Below are positions 2,483 through 24,191 of a DNA stretch of 64,000 nt, in pieces. The position numbers were made by a program, and so were the translations under genes. The stretch's first letter is position 1, and the number at the start of each line of letters is the position of its first letter. Source of the DNA: Simplicispira hankyongi (lineage in GTDB: Bacteria; Pseudomonadota; Gammaproteobacteria; Burkholderiales; Burkholderiaceae_C); the NCBI RefSeq assembly GCF_003570885.1, contig NZ_QXJC01000001.1, forward strand, positions 1,240,001-1,304,000, read 5' to 3'. The notes below the pieces were generated by a model. It saw only the letters and a program-made list of their open reading frames with translations. It did no database searches and had not been told where the DNA came from.

Positions 2483-3556
2483 ATGATGAAAATCGCGGTG
2501 TTGCCGGGTGACGGCATTGGCACAGAAATCGTCGCCGAGGCCATCAAGGTCCTGGATGCGCTGGGCCTCCCCTTCGAGATGGAATCGGCCCTGGTGGGCG
2601 GCGCTGCCTACGAGGCGCACGGCCACCCTCTGCCCGAGTCCACCCTGAAGCTCGCCAAGGAGTCCGACGCCATCCTGTTTGGCGCCGTGGGCGACTGGAA
2701 ATACGACAAACTCGACCGCCCCCTGCGCCCCGAGCAAGCCATTTTGGGCCTGCGCAAGCACCTGGGCCTGTTTGCCAATTTCCGCCCCGCCATCTGCTAT
2801 GAGCAATTGGTGGGCGCGTCGAGCCTCAAGCCCGAGCTGATTGCAGGCCTCGACATCCTCATCATCCGCGAGCTGACCGGCGATATCTACTTCGGCCAGC
2901 CGCGCGGCCGCCGCACCGCCGTGGACGGCCACTTCCCCGGTGCCGAAGAAGCCTTCGACACCATGCGCTACAGCCGCCCCGAGATCGAACGCATCGCCCA
3001 CGTCGCCTTCCAGGCGGCGCGCAAGCGCAGCAAACGCGTGACCAGCGTGGACAAAGCCAACGTCTTGGAGACTTTCCAGTTCTGGAAAGACGTGATGACC
3101 GAAGTCGGCCAGCAATACCCCGACGTGGAACTGCAGCACATGTACGTGGACAACGCGGCCATGCAACTCGTCAAGGCGCCCAAGGCGTTTGACGTGATCG
3201 TCACCGGCAATATGTTTGGCGACATCCTCTCGGACGAAGCCTCCATGCTCACCGGCTCGATTGGCATGCTCCCCTCGGCATCGCTGAATGCCAAAAACCA
3301 GGGCCTGTACGAACCGAGCCACGGCAGCGCACCGGATATCGCCGGCAAAGGTGTGGCCAACCCGCTGGCCACCATCCTCAGCGCCGCCATGATGCTGCGC
3401 TTCAGTCTGAACCAGGAAGCCGCCGCCCAGCGCATTGAGGCCGCCGTGCAAAGCGTGCTGGCCCAAGGCCTGCGCACGCCGGATATCTACAGCGCAGGCA
3501 CCACCAAGGTGGGCACAGCGCAGATGGGGGATGCGGTGGTGACGGCACTGGGCTAA
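2483..3556 (+). CDS. leuB: 3-isopropylmalate dehydrogenase (LeuB)
   Basis: NAD-dependent oxidative decarboxylation of 3-isopropylmalate to the ketoacid precursor of leucine. It is 357 aa, the normal family length. The N-terminus [16 protein letters not shown] carries the cofactor-side GDGIG motif. Substrate-binding and metal residues lie in [18 protein letters not shown] and [12 protein letters not shown], and ApoNAD-side [10 protein letters not shown] is present. A second ATG three bases downstream is an equally good start. The Shine-Dalgarno is weak and the upstream 70 bp hold a palindromic repeat, so leuB may be expressed at a different level from leuCD. Confidence 0.97.
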
Positions 3557-3567
3557 CCGGCTCCAAA

Positions 3568-3590
3568 ACCCGGCGGGTCGTCTGCCGGGT
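3568..3590 (+). terminator. weak hairpin after leuB
   Basis: ACCCGGC and GCCGGGT form a 7-bp stem with a 9-base loop just after leuB. No T-run follows, so it would be at best an inefficient or Rho-assisted end, or an mRNA-stabilising hairpin. The rest of the 262-bp leuB-asd gap shows no gene. Confidence 0.25.
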
Positions 3591-3818
3591 GAAATTCACC
3601 ATCCAGTACAATTCAGCCCCATGCTCGCCGCTTGCCCGTTCGCATTGAACCCCACATCCGCCACCCTGGCCGATGTAGCAACGCGCGCAAGCACCACCAA
3701 AACCACGACCATTAAGGGCTGATCCAGCTCCGGTTCGTCGTGCGCCCTCCCTGGCCAGACGAGCCGGGGCAAAACAGTCTGGTCTGCACTGTTTTTTTAA
3801 CTTGATAGGGGCGTTGAA

Positions 3819-4949
3819 ATGAGCAAGTTGGTAGGACTCGTCGGCTGGCGCGGCATGGTCGGCTCGGTATTGATGGACCGCATGGCCGAAGAAAAAGACT
3901 TCGACCTGATCGAGCCGCTGTTTTTCTCCACGTCGAATGCCGGCGGCAAGGCCCCCGCACAGGCCAAGAACGAAGCCACGCTGCAAGACGCTTTCAACAT
4001 CGACGCCCTCAAGCGCTGCGACATCATCATCACGGCCCAAGGGGGCGACTACACGAACGAGGTCTACCCCAAGCTGCGCGCTGCAGGCTGGGCTGGCCAC
4101 TGGATTGACGCCGCATCCGCCCTGCGCATGGAGAAGAACGCCGTCATCGTGCTGGACCCGGTGAACATGCCCGTGATCAAGAACGCCTTGGCGCGGGGAG
4201 GCAAAGACTGGATCGGCGGCAACTGCACGGTCAGTTGCATGCTGATGGGAGTGGGCGCGCTCTACAAGGCAGGGCTCGTGGAGTGGATGAGCACGCAGAC
4301 CTACCAGGCGGCCTCGGGCGGCGGCGCCCAGCACATGCGCGAGCTGCTGACGCAGTACGGCACACTGAACGCCGAGGTCAAGGCACTGCTGGACGACCCC
4401 AAGAGCGCCATTCTGGAGATCGACCGCAAGGTCATCGCCAAGCAACGCGCGCTCACCAGCGCCGAAACGGCCAACTTCGGCGTACCCCTGGGGGGTTCGC
4501 TGATTCCCTGGATCGACAAAGACCTCGGCGACGGCATGTCCAAGGAAGAATGGAAGGGCATGGCCGAGACGAACAAGATTCTGGGCATGGGCGAGGGCTT
4601 CGACTCCGCTGCGATTCCCGTCGATGGCTTCTGCGTGCGCGTCGGCGCCATGCGCTGCCACAGCCAGGCACTGACCTTCAAGCTGAAGAAGGACGTCCCC
4701 GTGGCCGATATTGAAGCCATGATCGCGGCCGACAACGAATGGGTGCAGGTGGTGCCCAACACCCGCGAAGCCACCATCAAGTCTCTCACGCCTGTGGCCG
4801 TCACCGGCACGATGCAGATTCCCGTGGGCCGCATCCGCAAGCTGGCCATGGGGCCGGAATACGTTGGAGCATTCACCGTCGGCGACCAGCTTTTGTGGGG
4901 TGCGGCCGAGCCGCTGCGGCGTATGGTGCGCATCCTGCTGGATGCCTGA
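3819..4949 (+). CDS. asd: aspartate-semialdehyde dehydrogenase
   Basis: Reduces aspartyl phosphate to aspartate semialdehyde, the branch point to lysine/diaminopimelate, threonine and methionine. At 376 aa it belongs to the long Gram-negative type. The N-terminal NADP-binding segment is [13 protein letters not shown]. The catalytic cysteine is Cys136 in [12 protein letters not shown], and the acid-base histidine is in [11 protein letters not shown]. It follows leuB after 262 bp and precedes fimV, the same order seen in related betaproteobacteria. Only a weak GGGGCG ribosome site is visible before the ATG. Confidence 0.97.
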
Positions 4950-11658: not shown

Positions 11659-12531
11659 ATGTCCTGGCTAGAAAAACTCCTCCCCGCCAAGATCCAGCAA
11701 ACCGACCCCAATGTGCGCCGGCAAATGCCCGAAGGCCTGTGGATCAAGTGCCCGAGCTGCGAAACCGTGCTCTACAAGGCCGACCTGGAGCAGAACCAGA
11801 ATGTCTGCCCACAGTGCGGCCACCACCACCGCATTGGCGCCCGCGTCCGGCTCGACGCCTTTCTTGACCCGGAAGGCCGCTACGAGATCGGCCAAGAGGT
11901 CATTCCCGTCGATGCGCTCAAGTTCAAGGACAGCCGCAAATACCCCGAGCGCCTGAAAGAAGCGCTGGAGAACACCGGCGAGACCGACGCACTCATCGTC
12001 ATGGGCGGCGCGGTCAAAAGCATCAACGTCGTCGTCGCCTGCTTCGAGTTCGATTTCATGGGCGGCTCCATGGGCAGCGTGGTCGGCGAACGCTTCGTGC
12101 GCGGGGTGGAAACCGCCATCGAGCAGAAAGTGCCCTTCATCTGCTTCACCGCCACGGGCGGCGCACGCATGCAGGAGGGCCTGCTCTCGCTCATGCAGAT
12201 GGCCAAGACCAACGCAGCGCTGACCCGGCTAGCGAAGAAAAAACTGCCCTATATCAGCGTGCTGACCGACCCCACCATGGGCGGCGTGAGCGCGGGCTTT
12301 GCCTTTCTGGGCGACATCGTGATCGCCGAGCCCAAGGCGCTGATCGGCTTTGCCGGCCCCCGCGTGATCGAATCCACCGTGCGCGTCACCCTCCCCGAAG
12401 GCTTCCAGCGCGCCGAGTTCCTGATGCAAAAAGGTGCGGTGGACCTCATCAGCGACCGGCGCGAGTTGCGCAACACCATCGCCCAAAGCCTGGCCGTTCT
12501 GCAGCGCCTGCCGGCGGACGCGGTAGCCTGA
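11659..12531 (+). CDS. accD: acetyl-CoA carboxylase carboxyltransferase beta subunit
   Basis: With AccA it forms the carboxyltransferase that makes malonyl-CoA, the first step of fatty-acid synthesis. It has 290 aa from ATG 11659, which has an AAAGGAA ribosome site; the open frame reaches back to 11614. The N-terminal four-cysteine zinc ribbon is visible as CPSC at about 30-33 and CPQC at about 52-55. The crotonase-fold core shows [11 protein letters not shown] and [15 protein letters not shown]. It is closed by a clear terminator. Confidence 0.97.
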
Positions 12532-12549
12532 GGCAGCAACGCCACCCCT

Positions 12550-12579
12550 AAAAAGACCGCCATCCTTGGCGGTCTTTTT
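12550..12579 (+). terminator. rho-independent terminator after accD
   Basis: AAAAAGACCGCC (12550-12561) and GGCGGTCTTTTT (12568-12579) form a perfect 12-bp stem with a 6-base loop, ending in T5. Its symmetry means it could also act for minus-strand transcripts from yggT. Confidence 0.93.
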
Positions 12580-12590
12580 GCTACTCTATT

Positions 12591-12632
12591 AATAGCTATA
12601 AGCGCTTTACACATAAGCGCTGCGGGCCATTT
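12591..12632 (+). repeat. family A palindromic repeat, copy 3
   Basis: AATAGCTATAAGCGCTTTAC and ATAAGCGCTGCGGGCC, between the accD terminator and the end of yggT. Confidence 0.7.
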
Positions 12633-12644
12633 CAACCAATATTT

Positions 12645-13193
12645 TTAGCGCCACAAGGATATCTGCAGGTTGCCCAGCACCATGAGCAGCACCTGCAGCA
12701 GCACGATCAGCACCAGCGGCGAGAGATCCACTCCGCCCAGCGGCGGCAGCAAACGGCGCACCGGGCGCAGGATGGGCTCGGCCAGGCGGTCGATCACGTT
12801 GGCGATTGGCGAGCGCGCCTGCACCCAGGACATCACGGCGTGGACGATGACCAGCCCCATCACCGCGCTCACCGCCACGCGCAGCAGCCCAAACAGCGCC
12901 AGCCACGGCAGCCAGGCCCAGCCGGCCCCGGCACCAAGGATGATCCACAGAACCAGGTACTGCACCAATTGCACCAGCAAAGCCGCCAGCAGGCTGGCCC
13001 AGTCGATACCGCGCACGGCAGGAACAGCGCGGCGCAGCGGCAGCACCAGCCAGTCGGTCAGTGCAAACACCAATCGCCCTACCGGGTTGCCAAAGGGCAC
13101 ACGCTGCCACTGCATGTACAGGCGCAGCAAACAGGCGCCGGTCAACAGGCCACCGGCCACATCAAGCAAAAACGAGACAATCTGGTAGAGCAT
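12645..13193 (-). CDS. YggT-family integral membrane protein
   Basis: A 182-aa inner-membrane protein with two YggT units, each of hydrophobic helices followed by a P-x-R-R segment: [14 protein letters not shown] in the first and [24 protein letters not shown] in the second. YggT proteins have been linked to osmotic or ion homeostasis, but the molecular role is not settled. It is the only minus-strand gene in this part of the window and is divergent from the gene at 13224, with 30 bp between their starts. Confidence 0.9.
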
Positions 13194-13223
13194 GTGGTCC
13201 GGTCGGTAAATCTCTGACGTACG

Positions 13224-13877
13224 ATGATAGCCACCCCGATGAACGCACCGCTCTCGCTCACCTCACTGCCCCTGTTTCCGCTGGAAGCCGTGCTCTACCC
13301 TGGCGGCACGCTGGCGCTGCGTATCTTCGAGGTGCGCTACCTCACCATGGTGCGCAAGTGCCACGAGGCCGGGGCGCCGTTCGGCGTAGTGTGCCTGCAA
13401 AGCGGCACCGAGGTGCGCCGCGCAGGCGCCAGCTCCGAGCAACTGTGCCATGTAGGCACCCTGGCGCACATCGAAAGCCTGGAGTCTCCCCAGCCGGGTC
13501 TGCTGCTGGCACGGTGTCTCGGCAGTGCACGCTTTCGCATTCAGCGCTACACCCTGCTGCCGCACGGCCTGTGGGTGGCCGACGTGGAACAGATTCCCGA
13601 CGACCTGCCTATTCCCGTGCCGGAGCACCTGGCCGCCACCGCGACCGCCCTGGCTCCGGTGCTCGCCGCCCTGCGCGAGCGCCACGGCCCTGGTGCTGTC
13701 AGCGTGCCGACGCCCAAGCGGTTGCACGACAGCGGTTGGGTAGCCAACCGCTGGTGCGAACTGCTGCCGATGCCTTTGTCGCTCAAGCAGCAAATGATGG
13801 AGCTGGACAACCCCTTGCTGCGCCTGGAGCTGGTGAGCGATATGCTGGATCGCACAGGAATCGCTCCCGACGCTTGA
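13224..13877 (+). CDS. Lon-substrate-binding-domain (LON N-terminal) protein
   Basis: A 217-aa stand-alone protein resembling the substrate-recognition domain of Lon protease: [25 protein letters not shown] near the N-terminus is the family signature. It has no ATPase or protease domain. Such proteins are common in betaproteobacteria; their function is not established. ATG 13224 and ATG 13239 are both possible starts and neither has a good ribosome site, because the leader is shared with divergent yggT. lysS follows after 122 bp. Confidence 0.88.
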
Positions 13878-13999
13878 GCGTATTCGGGTCGTGCGCACAG
13901 CCTTCGCCCCCGGCGCGCTCCAGCAAATCTAAAATACGCGGTTCGGCGCATGCGCCCCGCCCCTCGCAGCCTGCCTGCTCCACCTTCTGTGCTTTGTCC

Positions 14000-15541
14000 A
14001 TGTCTGACCAAAACTCTGCCCCTACCGCTCCTGACGAGAACCAGCTGATCGCCGAGCGGCGCGAGAAACTGCGCGCCCTGCGTGAAGCCCAGACCCAAGG
14101 TACGGGCGTGGCCTTCCCCAACGATTTCAAGCCCTTGCACCACGCGGCCGATCTGCACGCGCTGCATGGCGACAGCAGCGCCGAACAGCTCACGGCAGCA
14201 CCCGTAACGGTCAGCGTGGCCGGCCGCATGATGCTCAAGCGCGTCATGGGCAAAGCGAGTTTTGCCACCATTCAGGACGGGTCGCTGGGCAGCCACGGCG
14301 GGCGCATCCAGTTGTATGTCACGCGCGACGCGCTGGGCGAAGACCTGTACGCCGCCTTCAAGCACTGGGATCTGGGCGACATCATCGGTGCCGAAGGCAC
14401 TCTGTTCAAAACGCGTACCGGCGAGCTGTCGATTCAGGTGACCCAGCTGCGCCTGCTGACCAAGAGCCTGCGGCCCATGCCCGACAAGTTCCACGGCATT
14501 GCCGACCAGGAAGTGAAATACCGCCAGCGCTATGTCGACCTGATGACCGACGAGGCCGCGCGCCAGCGCTTTGTCGCGCGCAGCAAAGCCGTCAGCGGTA
14601 TTCGCGACTTCATGGTGCAGCACGATTTCCTGGAAGTCGAAACGCCCATGCTGCACCCGATTCCGGGCGGCGCCAACGCCCGGCCGTTCGTCACGCACCA
14701 CAACGCGCTTGAGCAGGAGATGTACCTGCGCATCGCCCCCGAGCTGTTTTTGAAGCGCCTGCTGGTGGGTGGTTTCGAGCGGGTGTTCGAGATCAACCGC
14801 AACTTCCGCAACGAAGGCATCTCGGTGCGCCACAACCCCGAGTTCACCATGATGGAGTTCTACGCGGCGTACTGGAACTACCAGGACCTGATGGGCTTCA
14901 CCGAGGCACTGGTGCGCGATGCCGCACAGAAGGCCGTGGGCACGCTGCAGCTCTCGTACCAGGGCCGGGCCGTGGACCTGAGCCAGCCGTTCGCGCGCCT
15001 GACTATCCGCGAAGCCATCTTCCAGTACACCGAGGCCGGCGCGCATGTGGACGACGCTGCCTGGCTGATCAGCGCGCTGAAGAAATTGGGCATGAACGAA
15101 GAAAAGAACCGGCTCTCCACGCGCAGCCTGGCCAGCCTGCAGGTGCTGTACTTCGAGGAAACCGTGGAAGACCAGCTCTGGCAGCCCACGTTCATCATGG
15201 AGCACCCGACCGAAATCAGCCCGCTGGCGCGCGCCAACGACCAACGGCCCGAAGTCACCGAGCGCTTCGAGCTCTACATCACCGGGCGCGAATTCGGGAA
15301 CGGCTTTTCTGAACTCAACGACGCCGAGGACCAGGCCGCGCGCTTTCACGCCCAGGTGGCGGCCAAGGACAACGGCGACGATGAAGCCATGTATTTCGAC
15401 CACGACTTCGTGCGCGCGCTCGAATACGGCATGCCGCCCGCCGGCGGCTGCGGCATCGGCATCGACCGGCTGATGATGCTGCTGACCGACAGCCCCAGCA
15501 TTCGCGACGTGATCCTGTTCCCGGCCCTGCGGCGCGAGTGA
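14000..15541 (+). CDS. lysS: lysyl-tRNA synthetase (class II)
   Basis: Charges tRNA-Lys. It has 513 aa from ATG 14000 ([13 protein letters not shown]), close to the usual 500-510. It has an N-terminal OB-fold anticodon-binding domain (about 60-180). The class II core includes motif 2 ([20 protein letters not shown]) and motif 3 ([15 protein letters not shown]). The frame is open for about 940 bp upstream, but that stretch belongs to other genes. The mscS-like gene starts inside its stop codon. Confidence 0.97.
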
Positions 15542-16206
15542 GCGGGCCGCTACCGACGACCGGCATGGTGCCGCACCTGCAGCAGTTCAAATCCCGCCTG
15601 CCCGACTGGGTGCAGGACTGGCTGGACTTCATCGTCCCCAGCCTGCAGATCCTGCTGATCCTGCTGGCCGCCTGGGTGCTGCAGTACCTGCTGCGCCGGC
15701 TGGTGCGCCGCGCCAGCGCCCGCTACCAACTGCCCAGCAAGCTGCTGGCACCGCTGACCGGGCTGATCCGCTGGCTCATCATGGGCAGCGCACTGCTGCT
15801 GGTGCTTGAGCGCCTGGGCGTCTCGGCCACCGTGCTGTGGACCGCCTTCACCGGCTTTGCCACCGTCGGCGCGGTGGCCTTCTTCGCGGCGTGGAGCGTG
15901 CTCTCCAACCTGTTCTGCGCGCTGCTCATCCTCACCGTGCGGCCGTTTCGCGTCGGCGACCACATCGAGGTGCTCGACACCGCCGAAAAACCCGGCGCCA
16001 AGGGCCAGGTGGTGGACATCAACCTGCTCTACACCACGCTGCTCGACCACGACGCCGCGCGGGGCCAGCCGTGCTGGCTGCAGATTCCCAATGCCCTGGT
16101 GTTCCAGCGCGTGGTGCGGCGCTGGCAGGGCGTGCCGCCGGTGGTGGCGGCGGCGGGGGCGGAGTCAGAGGCGGAGCCGCCGGGGCTTGCCAGCGCGGGG
16201 CACTGA
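15538..16206 (+). CDS. small MscS-family mechanosensitive channel protein
   Basis: A 222-aa membrane protein of the MscS type. Hydrophobic helices occupy about 30-110, and the pore-lining third helix and start of the beta domain read [20 protein letters not shown] then FRVGDHIEV. The C-terminal cage domain is short compared with E. coli MscS (286 aa). The chosen GTG start at 15538 overlaps the lysS stop (GTGA); ATG 15565 is an alternative. The last 30 residues are Ala/Gly/Glu-rich and lie next to the integron remnant, so the C-terminus may have been altered when foreign DNA arrived. Confidence 0.85.
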
Positions 16207-16325
16207 TCGGCGGTCTGCGGAAAGACGTGCCAGGCGTGGCATTCCCCAGAAAAAAGCGAATAGGTGCCGACCAAGCTGAGGGACGCGCCGCACGCGCGTT
16301 CTGCTGGAGCGCGGAGTTAAGCCAA

Positions 16326-16385
16326 GCCCAACGTTTGACTTAAGCGGCCTGCCGAAGGCAGGTCCGCTTGAAGGATTGGTTGGGC
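16326..16385 (-). other. attC site (integron cassette recombination site), complete
   Basis: A 60-bp site with outer boxes GCCCAAC (16326-16332) and GTTGGGC (16379-16385), which are perfectly complementary and fit the RYYYAAC/GTTRRRY consensus. Inside is a hairpin AAGCGGCCTGCC / GGCAGGTCCGCTT with one unpaired T, the extrahelical-base feature used by integron integrases on folded attC. It lies directly after the stop codon of the gene at 16411-16821, as expected for a gene cassette read on the minus strand. Confidence 0.88.
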
Positions 16386-16410
16386 CATTGGGCGTCAGAC
16401 GAGTTTTTCC

Positions 16411-16821
16411 TCATAGCATGGACGGAATTTTTGTAGTGAAGGAGGCAAAATTTATCGCTAATACGCAAAAATTTCCGGCTGTCAGACCAAAAAGCAGTAG
16501 GCGTTTGTGGGCAATGGCGGCTGAAAGTGGCTTTTGAGGTTTGGCTGTTATTACTCCCGCGGTGCCTAGCGCAAAAACGAATACCCCTGCCATAGTCGCT
16601 GCATAGAGAATACGGCCGGCAGCATCGCGATCTATCTGCATCAGGATCAGGCCCTCTGCAGTTGTAGTCGCGGCGACTATGCTCGCGATCACCAAGGAAA
16701 TAAGAAAGAAGGCGGGCTGACCAGCTTCATACTTCGTCCTTAAGATTCTTACGCCGAGAAGGTAAGAAAACAAAATAGAGTACGCGCCGCACGCGCATAT
16801 CGTGAAGATGAACGATGTCAT
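16411..16821 (-). CDS. integron-cassette-encoded membrane protein, unknown function
   Basis: A 136-aa product from ATG 16821 (a TTG 12 bases upstream is possible). It has about four hydrophobic segments (MTSFIFTICACGAYSILFSY; FFLISLVIASIVAATTTAEG; ILYAATMAGVFVFALGTAGV; LLLFGLTAGNFCVLAINFAS) and looks like a small four-helix inner-membrane protein. I recognise no family. The cassette starts TTGGGCC five bases before the ATG, and this is complementary to the GGCCCAAC box of its own attC. AT-richer codon use than its neighbours supports foreign origin. Confidence 0.75.
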   Translation of the reverse strand: MTSFIFTICACGAYSILFSYLLGVRILRTKYEAGQPAFFLISLVIASIVAATTTAEGLILMQIDRDAAGRILYAATMAGVFVFALGTAGVITAKPQKPLSAAIAHKRLLLFGLTAGNFCVLAINFASFTTKIPSML

Positions 16822-16833
16822 GCTGAGGCCCAA

Positions 16834-16889
16834 TGTCTGAATTCACCGGCCTGCGCGGCTTTTTCGCGCAAGTCCGGTGGAATGAATAC
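16834..16889 (-). other. partial attC site, left part of a split site
   Basis: Read on the minus strand, ATTCATTCCACCGGACTTGC, then GCGAAAAAGC, then CGCGCAGGCCGGTGAATTC and AGAC sits right before the next cassette start TTGGGCC. The arms CACCGGACTTGCGCG and CCGCGCAGGCCGGTG pair imperfectly around AAAAAG, and ATTCATTC matches the usual sequence just inside the outer box of attC sites. The outer box expected before ATTCATTC is missing, because the IS110-like element begins there. The base before TTGGGCC is A, where G is normal. Confidence 0.65.
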
Positions 16890-16892
16890 GAA

Positions 16893-16976
16893 GGGACTTC
16901 CCACCTCCCACAAACGGTGTCGAAGCACCAAGATTGAGATCTGACCATCAATCTGCCAACTGGAAAGGGGAAGTCC
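16893..16976 (+). promoter_or_regulatory. inverted repeat that can mask the transposase ribosome site
   Basis: GGACTTCCC (16894-16902) is perfectly complementary to GGGAAGTCC (16968-16976), which contains the GGGGAAG ribosome site and ends directly at the transposase ATG. A transcript reading in from outside would fold this 9-bp stem and hide the start. The stretch in between is a possible leader RNA. Confidence 0.5.
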
Positions 16977-18074
16977 ATGACTGAGATTACACGAGGTGAG
17001 ATCGTTCGGGTGGGTGTTGACCTGGCCAAGCATGTCATCCAGATCCACGCCGTCGATCAGGCAGGCCGCATCGTCACAGCCAAACCGCTGCCGCGCGAGA
17101 AGTTCCTGGCCTGGTGCACCCTGCAACTGCCGCCCGGCTGCCTCATTGCCATGGAAGCCTGCGGCGGCGCCCACCACTGGGCCAGGCGACTGCAGGAGAT
17201 GGGCTTTGATGCGCGGCTCATTGCGGGTCACTTCGTGGGGCCGTACCGCATGCAAGGCAAGAGCGGCAAGAACGACGCCAACGACGCAGCCGCAGTCTGC
17301 GAAGCAGCCTCGCGCCCCAACATGCGCTTTGTGCCCATCAAGACTGCACAGCAACAAGCGCTGCTGTCCGTACACCGCCTGCGCGAAGGCTACAAGGAAG
17401 AGCGCACCGCCTGCATCAACCGCATCCGGGGCCTGCTCACCGAATACGGCCTGGTCTTTGCACAAAGCCCAGAAGTGCTGCGCCTGGCACTGCAGGACAC
17501 ACTGGAAGACGCCAGTAACGAGTTGCCTGCGCTGGCCCGCATGGCGCTGCAACGCGCCCACCTGCAATGGATCGAGACCGAATGCCACATTGCCTGGTGC
17601 GACGAACGCATCACCGCCCATGTACGCACCGACGCCCAAGCCAAAGCAACCGCCCAGCTGTGCGGCATTGGCCCCGTCACTGCCTCGGCCCTGGTGGCAA
17701 GCGTGGGCGACTTCACGCAGTTCAAGACGGGCTCTCAGTTCGGCGCCTGGCTGGGTTTGGTGCCCAGCCAGAACTCCAGCGGCGGCAGGGCCAGCCTGGG
17801 GCGCATTACCAAACGCGGCGACGACTATTTGCGAACATTGCTGATCCAGGGCGCCAAGTCGGCCGTGATGAGCGCGCACAAACGCAGTGACCGCATCTCA
17901 GAGTGGCTGGTGCAACTCAAAGAGCGGGTCGGGTGGCAAAAGGCCGTGGTGGCGCTGGTCAACAAGAACGCCAGGATCGTCTGGGCGGTGCTGGCCAAAG
18001 GCCGGGGGTTTGACCCCAACCATATCTCCATCAAGCCCGGCGAGATGGTTGGCGCAGTTGTCGCCACTGACTGA
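16977..18074 (+). CDS. IS110-family transposase (DEDD type)
   Basis: A 365-aa recombinase. The N-terminal RuvC-like DEDD domain shows VGVDLAKHVIQ (first Asp), AMEACGGAHHWARRL (Glu) and GKNDANDAAAV (last Asp pair). A coiled-coil-like middle follows. The C-terminal Transposase_20 domain has LCGIGPVTASALVASVGDF and LGLVPSQNSSGGRASLGRIT, including the serine expected to attack DNA. It is full length with no frameshift, so it may still be active. It lies on the strand opposite to the cassette genes around it. Confidence 0.93.
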   Translation: MTEITRGEIVRVGVDLAKHVIQIHAVDQAGRIVTAKPLPREKFLAWCTLQLPPGCLIAMEACGGAHHWARRLQEMGFDARLIAGHFVGPYRMQGKSGKNDANDAAAVCEAASRPNMRFVPIKTAQQQALLSVHRLREGYKEERTACINRIRGLLTEYGLVFAQSPEVLRLALQDTLEDASNELPALARMALQRAHLQWIETECHIAWCDERITAHVRTDAQAKATAQLCGIGPVTASALVASVGDFTQFKTGSQFGAWLGLVPSQNSSGGRASLGRITKRGDDYLRTLLIQGAKSAVMSAHKRSDRISEWLVQLKERVGWQKAVVALVNKNARIVWAVLAKGRGFDPNHISIKPGEMVGAVVATD

Positions 18075-18691
18075 ACACTCCGAAATCAAAAACTTTTAAA
18101 CGATTGATTTTCTCTGTAAGACGTGCGTTCGAAGATGCATCAAACAGGTCAGACCGGTGGCAGGTGAACTCGACTAACCCTGTGTTGCGCCCAGAGTGGC
18201 GACGACGGTGAATGAATGGAGTCCTGCCAAGCGGTTCGTATCTGGGCCCGCACTGAAACCCGAGTGCAACAAGGCCGCCTGTAGATGTGCAGTCTGTTCC
18301 ATGTGGCGTTGCATCACGCAGAACGCACGCGGCTTATGGGAGAGAAGAGAGGCAGCCCGTAATCAAGAAAATCAACAAAACCTGTTGACTAGGTGGGGAG
18401 TCCCTGTAGAGTGGTTAGACCCAGACGCAAAAACAGAAACCGCTGAATTGACGATGGGCACAAACTGCGAAAAAGCACTGCGCAACCGAGGCGGCGCAAC
18501 GCTTTCAAAATGATAGCTGGTGGCGCAAGCTGCGCAAGGACTAGAGACCAAAAAGGCTTGAAACTAGCACAGGATCCAAAGGCGAAGCTAGGCACACGGC
18601 AAAACACCCAGCGGATAACGCTTGAGAAGATAAATGCCGGTGAACAAAAAATGAGACTGAATAAAGCGGGTTTTTCGCAGGCCAACTATAT
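18075..18691 (+). other. 617-bp gap right of the transposase, no convincing gene
   Basis: It holds the right end of the IS, a decayed family A repeat (18511-18549) and possible attC fragments. A small hairpin GAAATCAA / TTGATTTT lies just after the transposase stop. A 105-codon open frame at 18196-18513 has no recognisable features or ribosome site and is not called as a gene. The expected attC of the 159-aa cassette to the right is not recognisable. Confidence 0.5.
18511..18549 (+). repeat. family A palindromic repeat, decayed copy
   Basis: TGATAGCTGGTGGCGCAAGC followed by TGCGCAAGGACTAGAGACC retains the TGATAGCT arm and the CTAGAGRCC arm, but the AGCGCTT core has changed to a GGCGCAAGC/TGCGC variant. 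Confidence 0.55.
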
Positions 18692-19171
18692 TTAGGCGTC
18701 GCCTGTCTCTAACGTCACCAGGCTACCGATCCGAGAGTTTGGGAAGTTGACCAATAGAGACTTCAGTTCTTGAGCGATAAGGGAAAGAAGTTGCTCTGCA
18801 TGATCCCCTGTGGCGATTGCGTGCGTCTTCGCATATTCAAGATCAATAGACTCGTCATGGATGCCGCGAATTGATTGCATTAAAGCCGCATGGGCAAGAT
18901 AGTTGCGATGCTCCGGAAGCTTTCGTAAGTGCTCAATCAATTTGGTGTTTCGATTGACCTTTTCGAACATTGTCGTAATTGTTCCCAAAGCAGCTTTATT
19001 GATTTTCTTTGAATCAACTTGAAATGGAATACCGTAAGGAACTGCAGCCGCAATCAGTTGCTCGGCTGTACCCACGTACAACCGCAGCGCTTCCTCGATC
19101 ATCTGCATAAACGCAAGCGCTCGCATTAGATGCGGCAGTAGCTCTCTCGATTGTTGCTGTCTATTGCTCAT
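18692..19171 (-). CDS. cassette-encoded protein of unknown function
   Basis: A soluble, mostly helical 159-aa protein (MSNRQQQSRELLPHLMRALA at the start) with a histidine-containing stretch LRKLPEHRNYLAHAALMQS that recalls HEPN- or DUF-type helical bundles, though no family is recognised. The ATG lies only 4 bases after the attC of the next cassette, a position typical of cassette genes; the cassette would start TTAGGG. Its downstream attC is not clear, so the cassette may be degraded on that side. GC content is well below that of the neighbouring housekeeping genes. Confidence 0.7.
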   Translation of the reverse strand: MSNRQQQSRELLPHLMRALAFMQMIEEALRLYVGTAEQLIAAAVPYGIPFQVDSKKINKAALGTITTMFEKVNRNTKLIEHLRKLPEHRNYLAHAALMQSIRGIHDESIDLEYAKTHAIATGDHAEQLLSLIAQELKSLLVNFPNSRIGSLVTLETGDA

Positions 19172-19174
19172 GAT

Positions 19175-19231
19175 CCCTAACGCTGGAATTGAGCGGCGGC
19201 GTAGCCGTCCGCCTCGAATGAAATGTTAGAC
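19175..19231 (-). other. attC site of the first (attI-proximal) cassette
   Basis: A 57-bp site with outer boxes CCCTAAC (19175-19181) and GTTAGAC (19225-19231) around a GC-rich hairpin GAGCGGCGG / CCGCCTC. Read on the minus strand, the GGTCTAAC box overlaps the stop codon of the 57-aa gene. The cassette itself begins TTAGACC at 19460-19454, the exact complement of that box, as expected for a cassette inserted from a circle. Confidence 0.85.
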
Positions 19232-19399
19232 CTTTGGCGGAAGGGCCCGCCGATGTTGAGCCTCAGCTTGAGCAAGCCTGGCAAGAATCGCGAGGAAACA
19301 GCCGATGGCAATGAGACCTACGCCCAAGGTTGCTTGGCTAAGCGAAAGAATGCCGCCGATAACCACTAGTATGCCGAGGATGACCAGAAAGATGCTCAT
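19226..19399 (-). CDS. 57-aa cassette-encoded membrane peptide
   Basis: The peptide starts MSIFLVILGILVVIGGILSL and has two hydrophobic segments separated by SQATLG, then a charged tail QAEAQHRRALPPKV. It has a strong GGGAGGGGG ribosome site. The stop codon lies within the attC outer box, a common cassette economy. Small two-helix peptides of this kind are frequent in integron cassettes and their functions are largely unknown; a membrane-acting toxin or stress peptide is possible but not shown. Confidence 0.8.
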   Translation of the reverse strand: MSIFLVILGILVVIGGILSLSQATLGVGLIAIGCFLAILARLAQAEAQHRRALPPKV

Positions 19400-19454
19400 A
19401 TTCCCCCTCCCTGTTGCAGATGATCAACGCTCTACGCCAAGCCTGGCGAGAGAG

Positions 19455-19575
19455 GTCTAACTAGAATTAGACGACAGTGATGCTACGTGGAACGGTCTGA
19501 TAACGCAACGCATCTCCCAGCCCTCCCAGTTAAACCCCAATGGGTTGCCATTTAGGCAAACCTAAGATTTTGCGG
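19455..19575 (-). other. attI side of the integron with first cassette junction
   Basis: GTCTAAC at 19455-19461 (GTTAGAC on the minus strand) marks the attI/cassette crossover. The 115 bp from there to the intI start holds the expected attI and the divergent promoter region. The exact attI limits and a cassette promoter cannot be defined by eye. Confidence 0.6.
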
Positions 19576-19713
19576 ATGTCGACTAATCCCGCAAATCAGC
19601 CAACTGCCGCCGGTGATGCCCCGGCGCCGCGCCGGCCCATGCTGTTGGAGCGTTTGCGCATTCACCTGCCCACCCGGCACTACAGCATTCGCACCGAGCA
19701 GGCCTATGCCGAT
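19576..19713 (+). pseudogene. truncated integron integrase gene (intI remnant)
   Basis: Codes for 46 residues, ending in LLERLRIHLPTRHYSIRTEQ then AYAD. This is the N-terminal SAM-like domain of IntI tyrosine recombinases, where RHYSxRTEQAYxxW is highly conserved. After YAD the match stops: the next codons read SARSRAGATPS, and 47 bp later the 3' end of pfkA is reached. The catalytic domain (R..H..R..Y) is entirely missing, so no integrase can be made. The gene points away from the cassette array, as in intact integrons. Confidence 0.85.
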
Positions 19714-19759
19714 TCGGCGCGGAGCCGGGCTGGTGCAACCCCATCCCGCCCTGCCACCC

Positions 19760-20815
19760 TCACCCCAAACACACCCCAATATCCCGCGCAATAGCGATCA
19801 GCTCGTGGTCCAGCGGCACCTTGCGCTGGGTGTTCGCCACCTCGGCGATCGGCACGCTGCCGATCTGGCCGCCCTGCAGCGTGGCCATGCGGCCGAACTG
19901 GCCTTCGGTCACCAGCCGCGCCGCATGGTGGCCAAAGCGGGTGGCGAGCACGCGGTCGAACGGGGTCGGGTCGCCGCCGCGCTGGACGTGGCCGAGCACG
20001 GTGGCGCGCACCTCGCTCGCCAGGTGCGGCTGGAGCTGCTCGCGCAGCACATGGCCGACGCCGCCCAGGCGCACCGGGTCGGGGCTGTGGGCGATGCGCT
20101 CGCGCACGGTGAGCGCGCCGCCGCGCTCCTTGGCGCCTTCGCCGATGCAGATGATGGTGTAGCGCTGGCGCTGCTCGCGCTCGCGGCAGCGCTCAATGAC
20201 GGCCCGCAGGTCGTAGTCGATCTCGGGCAGCAGGATGACGTCGGCCGCGCCGGCGATGCCGCTCTCGAGCGCCAGCCAGCCGGCGTGGCGGCCCATGGTT
20301 TCGACGATCATCACGCGGTGGTGGCTGTAGGCGGTGCTCTCGATGCGGCGCAGCGCATCGGTGACGGTGGCCACGGCGGTGTCAAAGCCGAAGCTGCGCT
20401 CGCACAGGGCGATGTCGTTGTCGATGGTCTTGGGCACGCCCACGCAGGCCAGGCCCACTTGCGCCAGGCCGTACGCCTGGCTCATGGTGCCGTCGCCGCC
20501 AATGGCCACCACCACGTCCAGCCCCAGCGCGCGCACGTTGCGGCCCACCTGCTCCAGGGTGGCGGCGTCCTTCAAGGGGTTGGCGCTGTTGCTGGTGCCC
20601 AGCAGGGTGCCGCCGACGTGCAGGATGCCCGACACCTGCTCCCAGCCGAGCGCTCGCGTGCGCGGCGCCGCGCCCATCAGGCCCTCGAAGCCGTCCGCGA
20701 TGCCCAGCACCTCGCACTGCCCGTGGTGGATGAGCGACTTGGTGACGGCGCGGATCACCGCGTTCAGGCCGGGGCAGTCGCCCCCGCCGGTGAGCACACC
20801 TACGCGCAGCGTCAT
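19760..20815 (-). CDS. pfkA: 6-phosphofructokinase, group III-like
   Basis: A 351-aa phosphofructokinase that phosphorylates fructose 6-phosphate in glycolysis. The start is ATG 20815 with a GGAGAG ribosome site. LTGGGDCPGLNAVIR, AIGGDGTM and PKTIDNDI are seen. The GGDG glycine (position 104 in E. coli numbering) points to ATP use, while the lysine in PKTIDND (position 124) is typical of pyrophosphate-using or mixed-type enzymes. Phosphoryl-donor choice therefore cannot be read off with certainty. It is the last gene of the long minus-strand run that starts at lepA. Confidence 0.88.
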   Translation of the reverse strand: MTLRVGVLTGGGDCPGLNAVIRAVTKSLIHHGQCEVLGIADGFEGLMGAAPRTRALGWEQVSGILHVGGTLLGTSNSANPLKDAATLEQVGRNVRALGLDVVVAIGGDGTMSQAYGLAQVGLACVGVPKTIDNDIALCERSFGFDTAVATVTDALRRIESTAYSHHRVMIVETMGRHAGWLALESGIAGAADVILLPEIDYDLRAVIERCREREQRQRYTIICIGEGAKERGGALTVRERIAHSPDPVRLGGVGHVLREQLQPHLASEVRATVLGHVQRGGDPTPFDRVLATRFGHHAARLVTEGQFGRMATLQGGQIGSVPIAEVANTQRKVPLDHELIAIARDIGVCLG

Positions 20816-20861
20816 GGCAACTCTCCAAGGCGGTGCGCCCCTCCAGCATCGCGTAAAACCG

Positions 20862-20988
20862 GCGCGGCCCACGCCAGGGATGCCGAGCAAGGGCCGCCCC
20901 GCAGCGAGGGCATCGTCCCCCTTCCGCATCGCGCAGCGATGCAAGAGAAGGGGGAAGTCGCGCAGCGGCTCAGGGGGATGTACTTGCT
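20862..20988 (-). repeat. GC-rich intergenic repeat, family B, copy 2
   Basis: The pfkA-nagZ gap. Minus-strand CCCCCTGAGCCGCTGCGCGA, CTTCCCCCTTCTC and GGGGCGGCCCTTGC match copy 1 at 11496-11610 block by block, in the opposite orientation. Confidence 0.7.
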
Positions 20989-20990
20989 CA

Positions 20991-22091
20991 TCAGGGCAGC
21001 AGGTCCAGCGCCCGCATGTAGGCGGGCTGCAGCATCAGTTCGTCCCACGGCTGGGGCAGGGTTTCGGGCAGCAGCGCCAGGCGGCGCGCCTCGCTGTCCA
21101 CACTGGGCTGCCAGCGGCCCTGGGCCTGGGCTTTCTCCAGGCCATCCAGCAGTTCGTCCACTGCCCGGCCCTCGCCCAGGCTCTGGTTGCACAGCAGCAC
21201 CAGGTCGCAGCCGGCCTGCAGCGCGGCCACGGCGGCGTCGGTGTAGCTGACCACCTGGCCGTCCAGGCGGCGCGCGCCTTCCATGCTGAGGTCGTCGCTG
21301 AAGATGGCGCCGTCAAAACGCAGTTGGCGGCGCAGGATGTCCTGCAGCCAGCACTGCGAGAAGCCCGCGGGCCGGCTGTCCACCTTGGGGTAGACGATGT
21401 GCGCCGGCATCACGCCGGTGAGCGTGCTGCTGAGCCAGGCGTACGGCGCCGCGTCGTCCTGCAGGATCGCCTTGAGGCTGCGCTGGTCCACCGGCACGTC
21501 GGTGTGCGAATCGGCCCGCGCGAAGCCGTGCCCTGGAAAATGCTTGCCACAGTTGGCCATGCCCGCCTGCAGCAGGCCGTGCATCACGCTCTTGGCCAGC
21601 AGCGCCACCACGCGCGGATCGCGGTGGAAGGCGCGGTCGCCGATGACGCCGCTGCGCGAAGCGCCGGGCTCATCCGCATGGTCGAGGTCGAGCACGGGCG
21701 TGAAGGAAAAGTCCACACCGCAGGCGCGCAGCTCGCTGGCGAGCACATAGCCCGCCGCCGTGGCCGCGTTGGTGGCGGCGAGCGCGCCGCTGCCCGGCCC
21801 CGCCTTGCCGTCTTGTGTCCACAGCTCGCCAAAGGCGCGCATGGGGGGGATGTGGGTGAAGCCGTCGCTGCGAAAGCGCTGCACACGCCCGCCTTCGTGG
21901 TCCACGCTGATCAGCAGATCACCGCGCACCGCCTTGACGGCAGCGGTAAGGTCGAGCAGCTGGGCACGGCTTTCCCAGTTGCGGGCGAACAGGATGATGC
22001 CGCCGACCAGCGGGTGCGCCAGGCGGCGGCGGTCGCGGGCGGTGAGCACCGTGCCAGCCACGTCGATGAGGAGGGGAGCGTGTTCGGTCAT
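20991..22091 (-). CDS. nagZ: beta-N-acetylhexosaminidase NagZ
   Basis: Cytoplasmic glycoside hydrolase family 3 enzyme that removes N-acetylglucosamine from recycled muropeptides; its product can induce AmpC-type beta-lactamases in some bacteria. It has 366 aa against about 340 in E. coli. The catalytic histidine loop is KHFPGHGFARADSHTDVP and the nucleophile aspartate lies in IFSDDLSMEGA. LISVDHEGGRVQRF is the substrate-binding signature. It sits next to acpS and pdxJ, the usual betaproteobacterial order. Confidence 0.95.
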   Translation of the reverse strand: MTEHAPLLIDVAGTVLTARDRRRLAHPLVGGIILFARNWESRAQLLDLTAAVKAVRGDLLISVDHEGGRVQRFRSDGFTHIPPMRAFGELWTQDGKAGPGSGALAATNAATAAGYVLASELRACGVDFSFTPVLDLDHADEPGASRSGVIGDRAFHRDPRVVALLAKSVMHGLLQAGMANCGKHFPGHGFARADSHTDVPVDQRSLKAILQDDAAPYAWLSSTLTGVMPAHIVYPKVDSRPAGFSQCWLQDILRRQLRFDGAIFSDDLSMEGARRLDGQVVSYTDAAVAALQAGCDLVLLCNQSLGEGRAVDELLDGLEKAQAQGRWQPSVDSEARRLALLPETLPQPWDELMLQPAYMRALDLLP

Positions 22092-22121
22092 GGGAGTGGA
22101 AACAAGAGATTGCTATTGAGA

Positions 22122-22160
22122 TGATAGCTTCCAGCGCTTACCAGATAAGCGCTGGAGCAC
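22122..22160 (+). repeat. family A palindromic repeat, copy 4
   Basis: TGATAGCTTCCAGCGCTTAC then CAGATAAGCGCTGGAGCAC, in the 77-bp gap between acpS and nagZ. Confidence 0.8.
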
Positions 22161-22168
22161 GATATGGC

Positions 22169-22561
22169 TCAGTTTTTCTCGACCACGCAGAAGCTGGCTG
22201 CGTAGTCGGTTTCGTCCGTCACGCTGATGTGCGCCGTGAGGCCGCGCGCCTCGAACCATTCCTTGAGCGCGCCGTGCAGCACGATCACCGGTTGGCCGCT
22301 GGCGAGCTTGGCGACTTCGCAGGCGCGCCAGGTCATGGGCATGCGCATGCCCAGGCCAATCGCCTTGCTGAACGCCTCCTTGGCGGAAAAGCGCGTCGCC
22401 AGGTAGCGCAGGCCGCGCTCGGGCCAGCGGCCCGTGCGCATGCGCCAGGTGGCCAGCTCGCCTTCGGCCAGAACCTTGGCGGCAAAGCGCTCGCCATGGC
22501 GTTCCACGCTGGCGGCGATGCGGCGCACGTCGCAGATGTCGGTGCCTATGCCGTAGATCAT
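22169..22561 (-). CDS. acpS: holo-[acyl-carrier-protein] synthase
   Basis: Transfers phosphopantetheine from CoA to the serine of acyl carrier protein (the acpP at 35211 is a substrate). It has 130 aa from ATG 22561. Mg-binding Asp is in [14 protein letters not shown] and the Glu in [15 protein letters not shown], both family signatures. The longer open frame upstream overlaps a repeat and pdxJ and is not coding. It follows pdxJ after a short gap that holds a palindromic repeat. Confidence 0.95.
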
Positions 22562-22575
22562 TTTTTGGTCTTTTC

Positions 22576-22615
22576 GGCCTCTAGCGCTTATCTGGTAAGC
22601 GTTAGCAGCTATCAA
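22576..22615 (-). repeat. family A palindromic repeat, copy 5
   Basis: GGCCTCTAGCGCTTATCTGG then TAAGCGTTAGCAGCTATCA, filling the pdxJ-acpS gap just before the acpS ribosome-binding region. Confidence 0.85.
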
Positions 22616-22616
22616 A

Positions 22617-23396
22617 TCAGGAATTTTCAGACCCGGCTTGGCCCGCTTCGATGCAGGCCAGGTAGGCCTGCACCGTGGCGCGGTAGCCCAGCTCCAGCGC
22701 GTCGGCAATGAGGGCGTGGCCAATGGAAACCTCTTGCACGCCCGGCACGCCGCGCACGAAGGCGGCCAGGTTGTCCCGGTTCAGGTCGTGCCCGGCGTTG
22801 ACCGCGAGCCCCGCATCCAGCGCGGCCTGCGCAGCGGCGCGGTAGCGCTCCAACTCGGCGCCCTGCTGCGGCGTGCCCCAGGCGGCCGCATAGGGTTCGG
22901 TGTAGAGCTCGACGCGGTCGGCGCCCACGGCCCGGGCCTGCGCCATCTGCTCGGGCACCGGGTCCATGAACAGGCTCACGCGCACGCCCAGCGCCCGGCA
23001 TTCGGCAATCAGCGGCGCGAGCTTCTGCGCGTCCTGCGGAAAACTCCAGCCGTGGTCGCTGGTGAACTGGTCTTCGCTGTCGGGCACGAAGGTGGCTTGC
23101 TGGGGGCGCACCTGGCGGATGAACTCCATCAGGTTGTGCGAGGGGTTGCCTTCGATGTTGTATTCGCGCCCCGGCCACTGCCGGAGCAAAGCCGCCAGGG
23201 CATGCACGTCGTGCGCGCGGATGTGGCGCTCGTCGGGCCGGGGGTGCACCGTAATGCCCTGGGCGCCGGCCTCCAGGCAGATCTGCGCGGCGCGCAGCAC
23301 GTCGGGAATGCCCAGGTGGCGGGTGTTGCGCAGCAGCGCCACCTTGTTGACGTTGACCGAGAGCGCGGTGCGGTGGGGGGAAGCAGAAGAGGTCAT
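22617..23396 (-). CDS. pdxJ: pyridoxine 5'-phosphate synthase
   Basis: Last ring-closing step of DXP-dependent vitamin B6 synthesis. It has 259 aa, a little longer than the usual 240-250 because of a short N-terminal extension. [16 protein letters not shown] starts the TIM barrel; [14 protein letters not shown] and [14 protein letters not shown] carry catalytic histidine and glutamate; [11 protein letters not shown] and [12 protein letters not shown] are late phosphate-binding motifs. It lies between recO and acpS, the classic rnc-era-recO-pdxJ-acpS order. Confidence 0.96.
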
Positions 23397-23429
23397 AGAG
23401 CGGGTGGGCCAAGAGAACGCGGCGCAGGA

Positions 23430-24191
23430 TCAGAGCGCCTGCACGTCCATCATGAATTGGCGGGTGCGCAGGCGCGGGCTGCCGCAATGGTATTGCAGCA
23501 GCGCACGCAATTGGGGCTTGAGTTCAAAGGCCACCGGCGCGCAGGCACGCAGCAGGGCCGTCAACGCCGCGCCTTCCTGCAACGCCTGCGCCAGCAGCAG
23601 CCACTGGGCGCCGCGCAGGCTGGCGCGCTCGTCGGACCCCGCCGCGCGCAGCCCCCCTTCGGCCACCAGCGTGTAGCGCGCCGCGGGGTCAAGCGCATGC
23701 TGCGTCAGCGTCTGCAGGTCCAGCGCCGGCAGCAGGCCCACTTCGCGCAGCAGCACCAGCTCGAACAGGCGCAGCACGGGCTCCAGCGCCTCGCCGTGCT
23801 CGCTGGCCAGCACCCGCACCACGGCCGCGTAGTGGTCAAACAGCAGCGCGTGCGGGTCGCCCCGCGCCAGAAGGCGCAGCAGCAGCTCGTTCATGTACAG
23901 GCCCGCGAGCAGCGCGTCGCCCGTGGGCATGATGTGGCCGCCGACCCACTCCGCTCCCTTGAGGGTGTGGATCTCGGCGTCGCCGCCGGCGCTTTGCGTC
24001 CAGCCCAGGTGCAGGGGCTGGAGCGGCAGCAGCACCGGGCGAAAGTTGGAACTGGGCTTCTTGGCCCCCTTGGCCACCAGCGCGGTGCGCCCATGGTTGC
24101 GCGTGAACACTTCCAGGATCAGGCTGGACTCGCTCCAGTCGTAGCGGTGCAGGACGAAAGCCGGCTCATTGGAAAAGCGGCGCGGAGGCAT
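23430..24191 (-). CDS. recO: DNA repair protein RecO
   Basis: Helps load RecA on single-stranded DNA in the RecFOR pathway. It has 253 aa, with the N-terminal OB-fold ([20 protein letters not shown] and [13 protein letters not shown]) and a helical C-terminal domain. The zinc cysteines found in some RecO proteins are not evident in the C-terminal half. The gene is preceded by a repeat-rich gap from era, so it may be only loosely coupled to era. Confidence 0.93.

What the first reader, a model, noticed from the sequence alone, without database searches (positions are those of the whole stretch)
16326..19713. Remnant of an integron between mscS and pfkA
Seen: two complete attC sites (16326-16385 and 19175-19231), a third split one (16834-16889), a boundary box at 19455-19461 and a 46-codon intI stub at 19576-19713 pointing away from the array. 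For the 57-aa and the 136-aa cassettes, the cassette start (TTAGACC, TTGGGCC) is exactly complementary to the outer box of its own attC, which is the strongest internal proof. Inference: the integrase was truncated by a deletion that joined intI to the region after pfkA, freezing the array.
Basis: partly seen in the sequence, partly recalled or inferred. Interest (0 to 1): 0.8.

Follow-up and report, generated by a model that had tools for sequence, protein, structure and literature searches.

The report
Dead chromosomal integron with frozen cassettes
This stretch of a Giesbergeria-like bacterium's chromosome is a genuine gene-capturing integron that lost most of its integrase gene by a deletion, while a close relative still carries the intact gene at the same spot.

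Summary
An attC model built only from other genomes finds the two complete sites on the expected strand (63.4 and 48.2 bits; E 3e-13 and 1e-9). The third site is cut by a 1.5-kb IS1111/IS110-type insertion sequence. The intI stub is 78% identical over 49 aa to a full IntI in relative G011 (97% identical in mscS); there the intact gene runs straight into pfkA, so about 944 bp of G011 have no counterpart here. G000 has no complete IntI, only two fragments and XerC/XerD-like genes. At the same gap G018 has one ORF, one weak attC and no intI; G006 has neither. The genus is integron-rich: 14 of 26 genomes pass the IntI cut-off. All this is a new member of known kinds. The spin-off worth following is DUF1010: it holds a palindrome repeated 182 times in G000, and its frame is kept open while residues look weakly conserved.

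The parts
15538..16206 (+). mscS-type channel gene, distal flank of the array
   Evidence: Pfam PF00924 E 1.1e-8; its orthologue flanks the array in G011
16266..16322 (-). decayed distal attC (attC with no gene of its own)
   Evidence: 10.8 bits, E 1.3 here, not significant alone; the orthologous stretch in G011 (L066 4008-4064) scores 23.3 bits, E 0.0008
16326..16385 (-). attC of the 136/140-aa cassette, complete
   Evidence: 63.4 bits, E 3.1e-13
16411..16833 (-). cassette gene, 136 aa (from ATG) or 140 aa (from TTG), no known family
   Evidence: ORF; no Pfam or NCBIfam family over cut-off
16828..16883 (-). larger part of the split attC
   Evidence: partial model match 18.2 bits; outer box
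16884..18409 (+). IS1111-type insertion sequence (IS110 transposase) inside the attC; ends uncertain by about 3 bp
   Evidence: sub-terminal repeats 16893-16906 / 18391-18404, 13 of 14 matching; one copy in G000 at E <= 1e-100
16977..18074 (+). transposase gene of the insertion sequence, 365 aa
   Evidence: NF033542 IS110 family RNA-guided transposase E 9.5e-98
18075..18390 (+). long non-coding region downstream of tnp, expected place of a guide RNA
   Evidence: position only; guide matches to the target are not above chance
18410..18420 (-). outer end of the split attC (GTTAGAC on + at 18414-18420)
18414..18690 (-). DUF1010-type cassette, degraded copy
   Evidence: PF06231 82.6 bits, profile 1-53 of 66; one of 39 distinct copies of 270-278 nt, window copy included
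18692..19171 (-). 159-aa cassette gene; no attC between it and the DUF1010 cassette
   Evidence: a relative (39% identity over 92 aa) lies between two attC sites in another genome (33.5 and 25 bits)
19175..19231 (-). attC of the 57-aa cassette, complete
   Evidence: 48.2 bits, E 1.4e-9
19226..19399 (-). 57-aa cassette gene, first cassette after attI
   Evidence: ORF; no family over cut-off
19455..19575 (-). attI, boundary box GTCTAAC at 19455-19461
   Evidence: 19457-19725 match L084 (G011) and L038 (G008) at 91%, in both in front of a full intI
19576..19725 (+). intI stub, about 50 codons of the N-terminus
   Evidence: 78% identity over 49 aa to the full IntI of G011
19726..19737 (+). deletion joint, about 12 bp without match in G011; 944 bp of G011 missing here
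   Evidence: breakpoints L084 269 and 1214
19760..20815 (-). pfkA, proximal flank
   Evidence: 97% identical orthologue directly after the intact intI of G011

Best explanation
This is the remnant of a sedentary chromosomal integron between mscS and pfkA in one lineage of a Giesbergeria-like genus (Comamonadaceae). Shown: attI, two model-confirmed attC sites in the right orientation, cassette starts complementary to their own attC boxes, an intI stub pointing away from the array, and the uninterrupted intI beside pfkA in a close relative. Inferred: an integrase like that of G011 once placed cassettes at attI; an illegitimate deletion of about 944 bp then removed everything after codon 50 or so, catalytic domain included. 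As no complete IntI remains in this genome, the array should no longer shuffle unless an integrase comes from outside. An element of the IS1111-attC kind split one attC in a separate event.
For: attC model hits. Full IntI in G011 (472 bits against a cut-off of 265) followed by pfkA at 97% identity, closest in the PDB to IntI4, 2a3v, E 9e-82. The mscS side of G011 carries attCs; both genomes share their flank up to the terminal crossover and then differ. G000 has no IntI over the cut-off: two integron-integrase fragments, L001 and L004, and XerD-like and XerC-like genes. Same gap in G018: a 118-aa ORF, one weak attC (19.2 bits), no intI; in G006: about 200 bp, no integron.
Against: The junction between the 159-aa gene and the DUF1010 cassette has no attC. 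The stub alone scores weakly. In G011 the array end and the intI end are on two contigs (C101, C16), so their linkage is inferred. G011 is a MAG and G000 a draft of 19 contigs. The C-terminal fragment L004 is as close to G011 IntI (87% DNA over 123 bp) as the stub is (89% over 165 bp), so the missing tail could have been moved rather than lost; its match stops at the end of intI, so I cannot tell. Loss of movement was not measured.
Confidence: 0.95

Rival explanations
1. The palindromes are ordinary intergenic repeats or terminators and the stub belongs to a phage or Xer-type recombinase.
For: The genome holds an abundant palindromic repeat (182 matches); the stub is short with weak family scores.
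Against: The sites have attC boxes and strand-specific model scores; stub and attI match a locus with a full IntI; the undeleted locus exists in G011.
Confidence: 0.02
2. The cassettes still move because a functional IntI arriving from outside serves this array.
For: Intact IntIs are common in the genus (14 of 26 over the cut-off), and five further attC-like sites lie elsewhere in G000 (E <= 0.05).
Against: G000 itself has only IntI fragments.
Confidence: 0.08
3. The truncated intI is an assembly artefact and the integron is intact.
For: Draft genome of 19 contigs.
Against: The joint lies inside a 1.42-Mb contig of a genome rated 100% complete, and the search of the genome for integrase gave only fragments.
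Confidence: 0.03

Closest known systems
Sedentary chromosomal integrons with inactivated intI, as in Xanthomonas (PMC12444791; abstract and outline seen)
   Same: Ancestral integron at one chromosomal place, intI inactivated in some lineages, arrays then more stable
   Different: Here between mscS and pfkA, not downstream of ilvD; a Comamonadaceae lineage; inactivated by a deletion into the flank
IS1111 members that target attC, such as ISKpn4, ISPst6 and ISPa25 (PMC11187229, passages read; Tetu and Holmes 2008 and Post and Hall 2009 seen only in its reference list)
   Same: Transposase family, sub-terminal inverted repeats, long non-coding region downstream of tnp, insertion near one end of an attC
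   Different: A different element; exact ends and guide RNA not proved here
DUF1010 / gcuF gene cassettes of class 1 integrons (PMC11616780 and PMC3375312, passages read)
   Same: Same Pfam family and cassette layout; the plasmid cassette contains the same palindromic repeat
   Different: The window copy is degraded and its attC is cut by the insertion sequence; no resistance cassettes here. That the cassette between dfrA12 and aadA2 is called orfF or gcuF is recalled.

Membership tests
Integron | working intI gene for an integron-type tyrosine recombinase | tested here: not met
   About 50 codons remain; no complete IntI elsewhere in G000. Met at the same place in G011. Hence filed as a remnant.
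Integron | attI next to intI | tested here: met
   19455-19575 conserved with G011 and G008 in front of full intI genes; recombination not tested
Integron | array of attC sites in one orientation | tested here: met
   two strong model hits on the - strand; a third split, a fourth decayed
Integron | cassette starts complementary to their own attC outer box | tested here: met
   57-aa and 136-aa cassettes 7 of 7; not met at the 159-aa/DUF1010 junction
Integron | integrase-driven cassette movement | not testable with these tools
   arrays of G000 and G011 differ beyond the terminal crossover, which is indirect
IS1111-attC group | transposase of the IS110/IS1111 families | tested here: met
   NF033542 E 9.5e-98
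IS1111-attC group | sub-terminal inverted repeats and long non-coding region downstream of tnp | tested here: met
   13 of 14 bp; 316 nt downstream against 70 nt upstream
IS1111-attC group | insertion at one end of attC | tested here: met
   window site; 13 of 18 members examined, window included, have GTTAG within 5 bases of the right joint; a stricter two-box test is met by 6 of 18 and not by the window; 10 of 28 loci lacked recognisable ends
IS1111-attC group | guide RNA with matches to both target strands | tested here: inconclusive
   matches of 8 and 7 nt, as good in 0.07 and 0.19 of shuffles
DUF1010 cassette | PF06231 match in an attC-bounded cassette of about 275 nt | tested here: met
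   82.6 bits over profile 1-53 of 66, 273 nt; the reading frame is broken in this copy

The most novel reading that the evidence does not exclude
The recurring cassette trapped in this dead array belongs to the family behind the DUF1010 cassette that lies between dfrA12 and aadA2 in class 1 integrons. The family arose in Comamonadaceae by taking up this lineage's genome-wide palindromic repeat. It does not work as an ordinary protein: its frame is kept open so that ribosomes can run through the attC into the next cassette, or it acts through conserved hairpins. Pfam DUF1010 would then largely be the translation of a chromosomal repeat plus an attC site.
Probability: 0.3. Interest if true: 0.6.

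Novelty: new member of a known kind. Interest (0 to 1): 0.38.

Why it matters
One genus shows four states of one locus side by side: integron with intact integrase gene (G011), integrase deleted (this window), one ORF with a weak attC and no integrase (G018), no integron (G006). That makes the decay of a chromosomal integron readable step by step. It also points to Comamonadaceae chromosomes as a likely home of a cassette that matches 1802 of 72,556 plasmid records.

Tried and rejected
Rfam on 12000-24000 and on five loci with DUF1010 copies: no family at the attC or DUF1010 places, and no sRNA-Xcc1 among the matches. (One attI/leader match is on plasmid locus L253.)

Idea that DUF1010 is simply non-coding. 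For it: in 21 independent pairs, drawn from 45 uninterrupted frames, differences fall 0.32:0.32:0.36 on the codon positions (P 0.41 against uniform) and the nonsynonymous/synonymous ratio is 0.66. The controls give 0.22:0.14:0.64 and 0.06 for IntI (6 pairs; 14 loci given, L089 dropped for a stop) and 0.24:0.16:0.60 and 0.10 for the transposase (12 pairs of 26). Cassette lengths are 13, 8 and 18 by remainder of three. Against it: past the first 30 nt the DUF1010 frame is free of stops in 36 of 39 copies, and has an ATG in the first 60 nt and stays open in 32 of 39. In 35 of 36 aligned copies, columns 136-256, one stop is seen where 10.6 are expected, none of 1000 simulations being that low, while the other two frames show no avoidance. 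PMC3375312 (passages) also reports that a gcuF1 frame is translated as a fusion with the next cassette. So 'simply non-coding' is rejected; why the frame is kept open is unresolved.

Idea that the cassette carries a terminator: a conserved stem followed by T is visible. Support by covariation is modest (shuffles as high: 4 of 500 for the score, 15 of 500 for cells paired, 13 of 500 for double-changed cells, 144 of 500 for pairs with double change, 395 of 500 for pair types), and the terminator scan does not list it. Kept as a guess.

Guide matches of the insertion sequence to its attC: not above chance for the window element; 10 nt, 0 of 300 shuffles, for the other element in G011.

An attC after the 159-aa gene was looked for and not found.

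The box-pair attC finder gave no site in many loci, so it only served to collect model input: 49 of the 80 sites listed were used, and one of them (L116) looks poor in the alignment but was left in. The 39 DUF1010 copies are those with over 200 nt matched and both ends recognised; shorter or end-less matches were dropped uncounted.

Failed scripts: ended in errors; 9 and 32 were redone in part, 46 had printed most rows and was followed. One search read three loci on the wrong strand and was repeated.
Full report
What is there. The window is part of a 3.7-Mb draft genome (G000:C1:1240001-1304000). Between an mscS-type gene (15538-16206, +) and pfkA (19760-20815, -) lie, read from right to left on the - strand: attI, a 57-aa cassette with attC 19175-19231, a 159-aa gene, a degraded DUF1010 cassette, an attC cut by an insertion sequence, a 136/140-aa cassette with attC 16326-16385, and a decayed attC at 16266-16322. 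On the + strand, pointing away, is an intI stub at 19576.

Are the sites attC? The model was made from 49 attC sites of genomes fetched with the IntI of relative G011; neither the window nor G011 was in it. On the window it gives 63.4 bits (E 3.1e-13) for 16326-16385 and 48.2 bits (E 1.4e-9) for 19175-19231, both on the - strand, as an array running away from intI requires. The first palindrome on the + strand gets 22.7 bits. The inner part of the split site gets 18.2 bits, E 0.022; the distal site 10.8 bits, E 1.3, which alone is nothing. In G011 the orthologue of that distal site gets 23.3 bits, E 0.0008. Over the whole of G000 the model gives 7 matches at E <= 0.05: the 2 of this window and 5 elsewhere on contig C1. 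The starts of the 57-aa and 136-aa cassettes are complementary to their own outer boxes, 7 of 7 bases each.

Is the stub intI? Alone it is weak: NCBIfam integron integrase E 0.0028, Pfam SAM-like domain E 0.047. Against the full IntI of G011 it has 38 of 49 identities. DNA homology runs from attI (19457) to 19725 at 91%, then resumes at 19738 in the pfkA flank. The G011 positions are 1-269 and 1214 onwards, so 944 bp of G011 have no counterpart, and about 12 bp at the joint match neither side. G011 is 97% identical in mscS. Its contig C16 is attI, an IntI (open frame 357 aa, 343 aa from the ATG used; 472 bits, cut-off 265), then pfkA (97% identical) and nagZ. A named contig of the same length with identical IntI is JAGNYI010000097, MAG Giesbergeria sp.. 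Among solved structures that IntI is closest to IntI4, entry 2a3v, E 9e-82.

Other relatives. Twenty stretches from the genus were taken. In G018 mscS and pfkA are separated by a 118-aa ORF and one weak attC (19.2 bits, E 0.008) without intI; in G006 by about 200 bp without either. In 13 of the 20 stretches nagZ is the next of the genes searched after mscS, with no pfkA match. Over the genus 14 of 26 genomes have an IntI over the cut-off, and 21 of 26 have attC matches at E <= 0.001. G000 has none over the cut-off: L001 (C1:303975) is an N-terminal and L004 (C13:572353) a C-terminal integron-integrase fragment, L002/L005 fit XerD-type and L003 XerC-type recombinases better, which also ring in 14 of 14 control genomes below the cut-off. 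L004 is 87% identical to the G011 intI tail over 123 bp, so it could be the displaced tail of this very gene or the rest of another integron.

The insertion sequence. 16977-18074 encodes an IS110-family transposase (E 9.5e-98). Sub-terminal repeats of 14 bp (13 matching) lie at 16893-16906 and 18391-18404, and the long non-coding region is downstream of tnp. Those are marks of the IS1111 family in PMC11187229 (passages read). Of 299 family genomes, 25 have a match at E <= 1e-100, G000 included; G000 has one copy. Of 28 loci, 18 had both ends recognisable. In 13 of these 18 (window included; two genomes contribute two loci each) GTTAG follows the right joint within 5 bases. A stricter test for both outer boxes is met by 6 of 18, not by the window site. 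The 89%-identical element of G025 sits in a site that is not attC-like. No convincing guide matches were found for the window element.

The extra cassette. 18414-18690 matches Pfam DUF1010 (82.6 bits), but its start is lost and its frame shifted relative to intact copies, and the insertion sequence cuts its attC. DUF1010 occurs in 22 of 299 Comamonadaceae genomes at E <= 1e-6, and in 3 of 399 drawn from the order: G000, one other of the family, one of another family. Several genomes hold many copies (up to 18 matches). The 39 distinct copies compared are 270-278 nt long. On plasmids 1802 of 72,556 records match a translated copy, 1777 of them at under 60% identity; in the two records opened, DUF1010 lies between dfrA12 and aadA2. 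That this cassette is known as orfF or gcuF is recalled. PMC3375312 (passages) describes a gcuF1 cassette whose nearest relative, 87% identical, is in an Acidovorax genome, whose presence goes with ten-fold less transcript of the next cassette, and whose frame is translated as a fusion. PMC11616780 (passages) lists a DUF1010 cassette in blaGES-5 integrons.

What is odd about DUF1010. The first third of the Pfam profile contains the translation of a palindrome that matches 182 times in G000 (up to 2 mismatches; 0 for the pattern read backwards). The plasmid cassette has that palindrome with 1 mismatch, where the lowest of 200 shuffles is 10; the window copy has 5. The end of the profile lies in the attC, as read from the alignments. 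Differences between copies fall evenly on the three codon positions, unlike IntI and the transposase. Yet the frame avoids stops strongly (1 seen, 10.6 expected). An open frame with little residue constraint is the honest description; whether it is a fast-changing protein, a device for ribosomes, or something acting through RNA hairpins is open. Searches that touch this question: DUF1010 (10 papers; passages of two), gcuF with integron and cassette (39 papers, 12 listed; passages of two), ORF-less cassettes with terminators (153 papers at three of four terms, 12 listed; passages of two, one of them the same review), dfrA12/orfF/noncoding/Acidovorax (2 papers, listing only), noncoding cassette with Acidovorax (6 papers, listing), sRNA-Xcc1 with integron (11 papers, 8 listed). 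None of what I read treats this question, which is no proof that nobody has.

Verdict. The integron remnant is real and explained: a chromosomal integron whose integrase gene was cut down by a deletion, of the sort known from Xanthomonas (PMC12444791, abstract and outline). It is a new member of a known kind.

Noticed in passing
18414-18690 and copies in related loci (39 distinct, window included): DUF1010 cassette: near-constant length, holds a genome-wide palindromic repeat and the attC, frame kept open but differences even over codon positions.
   Followed up: yes
18685-18720: Junction of the 159-aa gene and the DUF1010 cassette lacks an attC; on the - strand the 9 bases before the crossover (CTAAATATA) resemble the attI end (CTAATTCTA), possibly by chance.
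   Followed up: partly
16266-16330: Two attC-like sites back to back at the distal end, as if the last cassette were an attC with no gene.
   Followed up: partly
L066 (G011:C101), reverse complement about 2510-4030: A second, different IS110/IS1111-type element (49% transposase identity) sits at the other end of an attC-like site in G011; its non-coding region holds a 10-nt match to its flank (0 of 300 shuffles).
   Followed up: partly
L001 and L004 (G000:C1:303975, G000:C13:572353): Two further integron-integrase fragments in the same genome; L004 may be the displaced tail of the window's intI or belong to another dead integron.
   Followed up: partly
G000 whole genome: 182 matches of a palindrome ATAGCT-N4-GCGCTT-N7-AAGCGCTAGAGGCC, a REP-like family; not checked how many lie in genes or cassettes.
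   Followed up: partly
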